IMG/VR virus record: IMGVR_UViG_3300042731_003022
Span: 1 to 23,672 of that record
Length of the DNA: 23,672 nucleotides
Direction: 5' to 3' (one strand)
From: a virus
The notes below the pieces were generated by a model, which saw only the letters and a program-made list of their open reading frames with translations, was not told where the DNA came from and made no database searches. The position numbers and the translations under genes were made by a program. This document shows positions 2,909-3,761 of this stretch, piece after piece. Position 1 is the first letter of the stretch; the number at the start of each line of letters is the position of its first letter.

Positions 2909-2937
2909 TTGACTTTTACATTTAATTTTGCTATATT
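2909..2937 (+). promoter_or_regulatory. Sigma70-type promoter for the structured RNA
   Basis: The -35 box TTGACT (2909-2914) and the -10 box TATATT (2932-2937) are separated by exactly 17 bp. Transcription would begin near 2944, which is the first base of the closing stem of the RNA described at 2944-3207. It is unlike the surrounding late boxes and suggests transcription by unmodified host RNA polymerase. Confidence 0.85.
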
Positions 2938-2943
2938 AGTAAC

Positions 2944-3207
2944 ATAAGCAATAAAAGAGTAATTAACTTTTATTTTTTAGTGCAAGGAAGAGGCGTTTAC
3001 CAGAGCGTCGAACTTGACTGCTTAGGGGTGGTACCCAGGCTTGGTAGTAGAAATACGCTGAGTCACATCGCTCTACCGAGCGGAAGTAGGTTCCCTGGAT
3101 TTGAGAATGGCATCTCGGTCGAGGGGTTGTAGGTATAACCGAGTCCTACCTAAAATTGCTTATTCTATTAAAGGTGTACAAGTTTACTTGTATGCCTTTT
3201 TCCTTTT
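2944..3207 (+). ncRNA. Free-standing structured non-coding RNA of unknown class (~260 nt)
   Basis: This RNA gene has its own sigma70 promoter and intrinsic terminator. Its ends are joined by a perfect 9-bp stem, ATAAGCAAT (2944-2952) with ATTGCTTAT (3155-3163). Inside, helices can form between 3002-3007 and 3069-3074 (AGAGCG/CGCTCT), 3015-3019 and 3061-3065 (TGACT/AGTCA), 3020-3040 (hairpin around GGTA), 3075-3080 and 3114-3119 (ACCGAG/CTCGGT), and 3129-3133 and 3145-3149 (GTAGG/CCTAC). The body is much richer in G and C than the flanking DNA and holds no credible reading frame. I could not match it to tmRNA, RNase P RNA, 6S RNA (it is branched, not rod-like), a group I intron or a known riboswitch. 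The gene is well supported; its function is unknown. Confidence 0.85.
3170..3207 (+). terminator. Intrinsic terminator of the structured RNA
   Basis: Thirteen consecutive pairs, including two G-U, form between 3170-3182 and 3187-3199 around the loop TTTA, followed by a T-rich tract at 3197-3207. It ends two bases before the next late promoter. Confidence 0.93.
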
Positions 3208-3209
3208 GT

Positions 3210-3217
3210 GATAAATA
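3210..3217 (+). promoter_or_regulatory. T4-type late promoter GATAAATA
   Basis: This is a one-base variant of TATAAATA, followed by C. The same GATAAATAC appears at 9529 and 19843, each in an intergenic gap, which supports it as the late box variant of this phage. It would transcribe the structured leader and the 3312-6082 gene group. Confidence 0.75.
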
Positions 3218-3232
3218 CATGTGTCAGATAGT

Positions 3233-3304
3233 GTGCCGCAAGGCGGACTTATGCTGTACCCACAGCGTAGCCCATAGAACGGGCATCGGACTTCTATAAA
3301 GGAG
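3233..3304 (+). promoter_or_regulatory. Three-hairpin 5' leader of the 3312 late unit
   Basis: Downstream of the late box the leader folds into three consecutive hairpins. These are GCC-GCAA-GGC with a GNRA loop (3235-3244), ATGCTGT-ACCC-ACAGCGT (3251-3268), and GCCC-ATAGAAC-GGGC (3270-3284). The heptamer CGGACTT occurs twice, at 3244-3250 and 3287-3293, bracketing hairpins two and three. AAGGAG (3299-3304) then serves the ATG at 3312. The structure is seen directly. Its function (stability, translational control or ligand sensing) is unknown, and I recognise no riboswitch class. Confidence 0.65.
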
Positions 3305-3311
3305 AAAACAA

Positions 3312-3761
3312 ATGGGAAGACCACTCAATAAAAGGTTATTCGGAGCGCCAACAGCGGCTGGCAACGAAATTAAAGTAAACTTTCATAACGGCACAGCAGT
3401 TAAAGAAGGTTACATTGTAAAGCAAAAAGGTTCAAAAAAATTCGTATGTGAAGAAATTGAAACAGCAGGCGAATTTACATGTACACTAAAAACAGGTGTA
3501 CTACCTGCGGCTTTATCAGCAGGTGAAATGGCAATTTCATTCAAAATGGACGACGGTGAAACTTACGGTGTAAGTAAAATTACAGGACGTAAGGCAACAT
3601 TAGTAGCACCAAGTGCAACAGGTTCAAACGCATATGACGGTTCGTCAGTGCCATGGAACTTTAGCACAAGTACTGCTGATGGTGCGGCACAAGTTGAAGA
3701 AGCTGGTGATGATAACACATTAACCGGTACTGATGATGACGATTTCACAGATGACGCATAA
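3312..3761 (+). CDS. Small virion-associated protein of marine T4-like phages (149 aa)
   Basis: The protein begins MGRPLNKRLFG, has a basic N-terminal half containing the segment GYIVKQKGSKKFVCEE, and ends in a strongly acidic tail with TDDDDFTDDA. Proteins of this plan sit near structural genes in marine T4-like phages and are usually annotated only as hypothetical or structural. It is the first gene after the late promoter and structured leader, with an excellent AAGGAG, which points to abundant late expression. No catalytic motif, signal peptide or membrane segment is visible. A capsid-decoration or neck role is possible but not shown. Confidence 0.85.
   Translation: MGRPLNKRLFGAPTAAGNEIKVNFHNGTAVKEGYIVKQKGSKKFVCEEIETAGEFTCTLKTGVLPAALSAGEMAISFKMDDGETYGVSKITGRKATLVAPSATGSNAYDGSSVPWNFSTSTADGAAQVEEAGDDNTLTGTDDDDFTDDA

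What the first reader, a model, noticed from the sequence alone, without database searches (positions are those of the whole stretch)
2909..3207. Independent structured RNA gene of unrecognised class between capsid and fibre modules
Seen directly: a TTGACT/TATATT promoter with 17-bp spacing, a predicted start that coincides with the first base of a perfect 9-bp end-to-end stem, several internal helices, and a 13-bp terminator hairpin with a T tract. The region is GC-rich against an AT-rich genome and lacks a reading frame. A host-type promoter inside late territory suggests expression by host polymerase, possibly from early infection. Size and branched shape do not match the standard RNAs I compared it to, so it may be a new phage RNA acting on host polymerase, ribosomes or mRNAs.
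Basis: partly seen in the sequence, partly recalled or inferred. Interest (0 to 1): 0.88.

Follow-up and report, generated by a model that had tools for sequence, protein, structure and literature searches.

The report
Stand-alone manA small RNA gene
A marine virus of bacteria carries its own small folded RNA gene, which belongs to a known but poorly understood RNA family (manA) filed as a gene-leader switch; comparison of about 90 related sites shows it is instead mostly a free-standing RNA, sometimes set flush among transfer-RNA genes and built with a transfer-RNA-like core.

Summary
In detail: 2909-3207 is a complete small transcription unit with a sigma-70 promoter, a ~220-nt structured RNA whose end-to-end stem starts at the predicted start site, and a 13-bp terminator. 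The class is not unrecognised: 2950-3159 is Rfam manA (RF01745, 58.7 bits, cut-off 55.2). Rfam types manA as cis-regulatory and the literature calls it a riboswitch candidate; the evidence here contradicts that. In about 90 distinct relatives the RNA keeps a promoter at a fixed distance (68 of 81 with at least 10/12 matches; shuffles 5.6%). In 50 of 88 it is followed by a terminator of unrelated sequence, and in 80 of 88 a terminator, late promoter, tRNA or convergent gene separates it from the next gene. In cyanophages it lies flush between tRNA genes (S-CREM1, ACG-2014f) or directly against one (S-SSM7). Covariation is overwhelming (32 of 42 pairs with two-sided changes). The core has cloverleaf linker lengths and invariant T-arm-like residues, without a free acceptor end. 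Best reading: an autonomous tRNA-like small RNA acting in trans. Its target is unknown and nothing here shows expression. Prior work noted manA next to tRNAs and a weak cloverleaf link, but dismissed the link.

The parts
2909..2937 (+). sigma-70-type promoter: TTGACT, 17 bp, TATATT, extended TG
   Evidence: conserved at a fixed distance 5' of the RNA in 68 of 81 distinct relatives, 5.6% in shuffles; also in cyanophages
2944..3163 (+). predicted RNA body: outer stem P0 (2944-2952/3155-3163) enclosing the manA fold; predicted start site about 2942-2944
   Evidence: compensatory changes in P0 across relatives (AUAAGCAA/UUGCUUAU, AUAUAGCAA/UUGCUAUAU, AUAAUGC/GCAUUAU, AUAAUAG/CUAUUAU)
2950..3159 (+). 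Rfam manA RNA (RF01745)
   Evidence: 58.7 bits, gathering score 55.2, E 7.9e-13; alignment
2975..2980 (+). closing (acceptor-like) stem, 5' strand; 3' strand at 3150-3155
   Evidence: two-sided changes with several Watson-Crick alternatives
2983..3016 (+). P2 (CAAG/CUUG, D-stem position) with hairpin P3
   Evidence: P2 99.5% paired; all five P3 pairs with two-sided changes
3018..3089 (+). P4 (anticodon-stem position) carrying further hairpins
   Evidence: six of six pairs with two-sided changes
3093..3126 (+). P8 (variable-arm position); its loop pairs with the P9 loop in many relatives
   Evidence: five of five pairs with two-sided changes; loop-loop contact moderately supported
3129..3149 (+). 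P9, T-arm-like hairpin: 5-bp stem, invariant G-C closing pair, invariant U and A in the loop
   Evidence: 53 of 53; 100% paired
3170..3207 (+). intrinsic terminator, 13-bp stem and T tract
   Evidence: position conserved and sequence not (46 distinct stem-loops in 50 loci)
3210..3217 (+). late-promoter-like GATAAATA of the next gene, lying 3' of the RNA and its terminator
   Evidence: conserved in relatives

Best explanation
The element is a free-standing small RNA gene of the manA family (RF01745). Host RNA polymerase reads it from its own sigma-70 promoter and stops at its own terminator; in some cyanophages the same RNA is instead cut out of a tRNA-cluster transcript. The RNA folds, from its first base to its last, into an outer stem plus a core with tRNA-like architecture: acceptor-like stem, 2-nt linker, 4-bp stem at the D-stem position, one purine, a stem at the anticodon-stem position, a variable-arm-like hairpin, and a T-arm-like hairpin joined directly to the acceptor-like strand. 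It most likely acts in trans by engaging a host protein or particle that recognises tRNA shape (a tRNA nuclease, a processing enzyme, or the ribosome), as a decoy or ligand. Shown by comparison: family, structure, independence from the next gene. Inferred: transcription, processing by tRNA enzymes, and the target. The confidence given is for the free-standing RNA gene with a tRNA-like core; the tRNA-mimic mode of action alone I put at about 0.3.
For: Rfam hit above the cut-off. A model built only from window relatives finds every manA RNA tested in 8 cyanophages and 4 Photobacterium genomes at E 1e-6 to 1e-20. Covariation: 86.7% of cells paired against 67.8% shuffled and at most 52% slid; 32 of 42 pairs with two-sided changes. 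Fixed promoter in 68 of 81, and TTGACA-type promoters directly 5' of the RNA in five of the seven cyanophage isolates, with a weaker one in P-HM2. Terminator 11-32 nt after the RNA in 50 of 88 against 0.7% in shuffles, 46 different stem-loops; no antiterminator pairing (own minus swapped +0.19 +/- 0.22 kcal/mol). 80 of 88 separated from the next gene by a terminator, late promoter, tRNA or convergent gene; convergent genes in L087/L089, L182, L149, L218. Flush tRNAs: ACG-2014f Arg/manA/Asn with 1-nt gaps, S-CREM1 Leu/manA/Asn, S-SSM7 manA/Gly with 0 nt, and near ones in L135 and L244. Diverse unrelated downstream genes. tRNA-like residues invariant in 53 of 53; two of the three best non-manA hits of the model in tRNA-rich loci are whole tRNAs in the matching register.
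Against: No expression or binding data. In 8 of 88 loci (for example Mosig, 25 nt before a rubrerythrin gene) nothing separates the RNA from the next gene, and about 15 gp32 loci have a late promoter but no terminator, so a leader role is possible there. L149 and L218 lack the promoter and sit behind gp32. The acceptor-like end is capped by P0 and P1, so it is not a tRNA. The tRNA hits of the model are weak (11-12 bits). About half of the phage records tested lack the RNA, so it is dispensable.
Confidence: 0.78

Rival explanations
1. manA is a riboswitch or other cis-regulatory leader, as filed by Rfam and proposed in 2010: it senses a metabolite and the terminator is its expression platform for the next gene.
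For: Rfam type Cis-reg; riboswitch rated probable in the source paper; promoter, aptamer, terminator, gene is the order of an attenuator; a few loci lie 25-35 nt before a start codon without a terminator.
Against: Terminators have unrelated sequences and no pairing preference for their own RNA; the next gene is convergent, a tRNA, or has its own late promoter 3' of the RNA; downstream genes share no theme; flush between tRNAs.
Confidence: 0.1
2. It is an antisense small RNA that pairs with host or phage mRNAs through its loops.
For: Own promoter and terminator are typical of trans-acting small RNAs.
Against: Loop sequences vary freely while the structure is kept, and the P8 and P9 loops tend to pair with each other; the invariant unpaired bases lie in junctions and the T-like loop, which suggests a shape recognised by a partner rather than an antisense seed.
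Confidence: 0.1
3. It is a cis-acting element of the DNA or of the late transcript (packaging, recombination or mRNA stability), and the promoter is incidental.
For: Sits next to gp23 or gp32 in several phages.
Against: Base-pair covariation, fixed promoter spacing, scattered genomic positions, and chromosomal copies in Photobacterium with a TATAGT -10-like motif about 245 nt from the next ORF.
Confidence: 0.03

Closest known systems
manA RNA, RF01745 (Weinberg et al. 2010, PMC2864571)
   Same: Sequence and structure family, marine T4-like phages and Photobacterium; reciprocal covariance-model hits
   Different: Filed as cis-regulatory and possible riboswitch; here an autonomous unit. The window's clade scores low (20 of 28 matching records below the cut-off) and has an outer stem P0 that the Rfam model does not include
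T4 small stable RNAs rnaC and rnaD (species 1 and 2)
   Same: Phage-encoded small stable RNAs of about 120-140 nt sitting almost flush in the tRNA cluster
   Different: No match of model R1 to rnaC or rnaD; manA is longer and mostly has its own promoter
Bacterial Y RNA tRNA-like module (YrlA) and the tmRNA tRNA-like domain (from memory)
   Same: A non-tRNA RNA that carries a tRNA-like module, in YrlA together with an outer stem formed by the two ends
   Different: No Rfam hit to either in the window or at the manA elements; no evidence of a Ro/Rsr partner or of a coding tag
Glutamine riboswitch RF01739 and freshwater-2 RF02980 (neighbours in the window)
   Same: Structured RNAs in the same intergenic stretch
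   Different: Separate elements: each directly precedes its own ORF; manA is cut off by its terminator and a late promoter

Membership tests
manA RNA (RF01745), as a sequence and structure family | Score above the curated gathering score | tested here: met
   58.7 against 55.2 bits, full length 1-192
manA RNA (RF01745), as a sequence and structure family | Consensus secondary structure kept with compensatory changes | tested here: met
   closing stem
manA RNA (RF01745), as a sequence and structure family | Reciprocal homology with known cyanophage and Photobacterium members | tested here: met
   R1, built without them, finds all at E 1e-6 to 1e-20
manA as cis-regulatory leader or riboswitch | RNA is part of the 5' UTR of the next gene | tested here: not met
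   In the window a terminator and a late promoter intervene; in 80 of 88 relatives a terminator, late promoter, tRNA or convergent gene does
manA as cis-regulatory leader or riboswitch | Expression platform: alternative pairing with the terminator | tested here: not met
   Own against swapped duplex energies do not differ
manA as cis-regulatory leader or riboswitch | Binds a small ligand | not testable with these tools
   needs in-line probing or SHAPE with metabolites
transfer RNA | Recognised as a tRNA with anticodon and free acceptor end | tested here: not met
   ARAGORN finds none in the window; acceptor-like stem is capped by P0 and P1
tRNA-like domain | Cloverleaf linker lengths, G53-C61, U54, A58 and Y60 equivalents, 0-nt T-arm to acceptor link | tested here: met
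   53 of 53 for U8, the 2-nt linker, G53-C61, U54, A58 and Y60; 52 of 53 for the one-nucleotide purine linker; same T-arm residues visible in the cyanophage RNAs
T4 rnaC and rnaD | Sequence or structure homology | tested here: not met
   R1, unfiltered, gives no match in rnaC or rnaD at E <= 1
6S RNA, RNase P RNA, SRP RNA, tmRNA | Rfam match | tested here: not met
   Only manA matches in the interval, also at E <= 0.1

The most novel reading that the evidence does not exclude
manA RNAs are a widespread class of phage-borne tRNA mimics: autonomous small RNAs with a capped acceptor stem and a T-arm-like hairpin held by a loop-loop contact, made early by host polymerase or cut out of tRNA transcripts, that occupy a host tRNA-recognising factor (for example a tRNA-cleaving defence nuclease or a translation factor) during infection.
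Probability: 0.3. Interest if true: 0.85.

Novelty: new member of a known kind. Interest (0 to 1): 0.55.

Why it matters
Papers of 2020-2023 still describe manA as a 5'-UTR or cis-regulatory RNA. If it is an autonomous tRNA-like RNA, a riboswitch candidate from 2010 stops being one, searches for its ligand are misdirected, and marine T4-like phages gain a widespread non-coding RNA whose target in translation or defence becomes directly testable in cultured cyanophage and pelagiphage systems.

Tried and rejected
(1) New RNA class: rejected, Rfam RF01745. (2) I first took the bracketed stem in the Rfam line for a pseudoknot (and the first notes); it is the nested closing stem of the multiloop. 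A separate loop-loop contact P8/P9 is only moderately supported (slide -1 scores almost as well). (3) Manipulation of host metabolism through mannose or sugar genes: downstream genes show no such theme. (4) Photobacterium hits of the DNA pattern are chance matches, not manA; the real Photobacterium manA genes were found with Rfam. (5) Homology to T4 rnaC/rnaD: none. (6) The isolates nearest by gp23 (Vibrio phage 2.275.O, PA5oct, Phosso) gave no manA match. (7) blastn of the second subfamily against isolate phages: no match. (8) Literature searches found no paper treating manA as a free-standing small RNA; the 2013 CMCompare paper (PMC3692125) notes that it often lies next to tRNAs and has a 13-bit cloverleaf link to tRNA, called presumably false. 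(9) The tRNA hits of R1 are too weak to prove common descent with tRNA.

Full report
WHAT IS THERE. The stretch 2909-3207 is a compact transcription unit: a TTGACT-17-TATATT promoter with extended TG, an RNA that folds end to end (z -3.82 against shuffles), and a 13-bp terminator. cmscan names the RNA: RF01745 manA, 2950-3159, 58.7 bits (cut-off 55.2), with a glutamine riboswitch (RF01739, 2666-2713) upstream and a freshwater-2 RNA (RF02980, 3232-3314) downstream. The promoter alone would not be significant (6 sites against 5 expected); its conservation makes it so.

SURROUNDINGS. gp23 major capsid protein (1017-2189) and an S-adenosylmethionine decarboxylase-like gene (2291-2662) lie upstream, then the glutamine riboswitch with a 50-aa ORF. 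All five ATAAATA late-promoter-like motifs of the window lie on the + strand within the 3.9% of bases that are intergenic. One of them, at 3211, lies after the manA terminator and before the freshwater-2 leader of the next gene (3312-3761). Late transcripts that start there do not contain manA.

RELATIVES. The downstream gene brought 80 viral contigs; 28 of 50 records searched carry RF01745 at E <= 0.001, 20 of them below the Rfam cut-off. After removing near duplicates, 81 to 92 distinct loci were analysed. They are related and were sampled through one conserved motif, so the percentages describe this clade, not the whole family.

PROMOTER. 68 of 81 have at least 10 of 12 consensus matches, most with the -10 ending 30-41 nt before the conserved UAGUGC; shuffles give 5.6%. 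Of the seven cyanophage isolates, P-SSM2, P-SSM4, P-SSM7, P-RSM4 and S-SSM7 carry a TTGACA-type promoter directly 5' of the RNA and P-HM2 a weaker one; S-CREM1 has a tRNA there instead.

3' SIDE. 50 of 88 have an intrinsic terminator 11-32 nt after the RNA (0.7% in shuffles), with 46 different stem-loop sequences. The terminator arm does not prefer to pair with its own RNA, so there is no sign of a riboswitch expression platform. In 80 of 88, a terminator, a late promoter, a tRNA or a convergent gene separates the RNA from the next gene. In L087/L089 the next gene is a convergent gene that looks Fis-like (my reading of its sequence; no family search was run on it); L182, L149 and L218 are also followed by genes on the other strand. 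Downstream genes include gp32, rubrerythrin, a cold-shock-type protein and unknowns, named here from their first residues or from isolate annotation. Eight loci, Mosig among them, could still be leaders, and some 15 gp32 loci lack a terminator but have a late promoter right after the RNA.

tRNA CLUSTERS. In Synechococcus phage ACG-2014f (about 45 genome records match; one was examined) manA lies at 2481-2691 of L309 between tRNA-Arg ending 2479 and tRNA-Asn starting 2693. In S-CREM1 it lies between tRNA-Leu and tRNA-Asn. In S-SSM7 it ends at the first base of tRNA-Gly. L135 and L244 have a tRNA 14 and 19 nt after the core. This is how a mature RNA gene is placed, not a leader. The 2013 CMCompare paper already reported, citing Rfam, that manA 'occurs often adjacent to tRNAs' (PMC3692125); what is added here is the flush spacing together with the promoter and terminator evidence.

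STRUCTURE. On 53 distinct sequences (A1), a 42-pair structure has 86.7% of cells paired (shuffled 67.8%, slid at most 52%), and 32 pairs show two-sided changes. The structure was partly derived from the same alignment, so the slid control is somewhat favourable to it. An outer stem P0, absent from the Rfam model, begins at the predicted start site and shows compensatory changes in subfamily A; it is weak in subfamily B. A model built from A1 alone (R1) finds the manA RNAs of P-SSM2, P-SSM4, P-SSM7, P-RSM4, P-HM2, S-SSM7, S-CREM1, ACG-2014f and four Photobacterium genomes at E 1e-6 to 1e-20, which confirms homology in both directions.

tRNA-LIKE CORE. Reading the structure in order gives: acceptor-like closing stem; invariant UG linker (U8, N9); 4-bp P2 at the D-stem position; a single purine (position 26; one sequence has two nucleotides); P4 at the anticodon-stem position; P8 at the variable-arm position; UU; then a 5-bp T-arm-like P9 with invariant G-C closing pair, invariant U (54) and A (58), U or C (60), joined with no linker to the acceptor-like 3' strand. 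The P9 loop has 11-13 nt instead of 7, and the inserted bases tend to pair with the P8 loop (moderate support). In tRNA-rich loci, two of the three best non-manA hits of R1 are whole tRNAs aligned in this register, but at 11-12 bits only. The outer stem and hairpin P1 cap the acceptor end, so this is not a tRNA.

MECHANISM. Most likely a trans-acting, shape-recognised RNA. The free-standing gene is well supported by comparison; the tRNA-like core is well supported as architecture; the partner (tRNA nuclease, processing enzyme, translation factor or ribosome) is inference. The RNA is dispensable: seven of 13 marine T4-like isolates carry it, while S-PM2, Syn19, S-ShM2, S-SM2, HTVC008M and Melnitz and several contigs over 90 kb give no match (Syn9 only a 20-bit hit).

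VERDICT. A new, divergent member of a known RNA family, in a context that argues against the family's cis-regulatory label.

Noticed in passing
2666-2888: Glutamine riboswitch (RF01739) directly before a 50-aa ORF with no family match, conserved near gp23 in many relatives; Melnitz has a similar riboswitch sequence at its tmRNA gene.
   Followed up: partly
3210-3314: freshwater-2 RNA (RF02980) lies between a late-promoter-like GATAAATA and the start codon of the 149-aa gene 3312-3761; a similar sequence is kept in nearly all 80 contigs found through that gene, so it looks like a true late-mRNA leader.
   Followed up: partly
2291-2662: S-adenosylmethionine decarboxylase-like gene directly after gp23 in a T4-like phage.
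   Followed up: no
L303:2085-2258, L307:2050-2154, L308:2142-2273: Annotated hypothetical proteins PSSM4_169.1, PHM2_011 and SSSM7_180 overlap the manA RNA and are probably not genes.
   Followed up: no
L124 and L205, just after manA: A shared structured-looking stretch (CCAGAGTAGATGCACCTGCTTTCCTGTGCATAGGACAAG...) with no Rfam match at the gathering threshold; possibly another small phage RNA.
   Followed up: no
L149 and L218: manA relatives without the promoter, directly behind gp32 and facing convergent genes; possibly transcribed as a 3' part of the gp32 mRNA.
   Followed up: partly
L310-L313: Photobacterium chromosomes carry manA in a long intergenic region about 245 nt before the next ORF, with a TATAGT -10-like motif.
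   Followed up: partly
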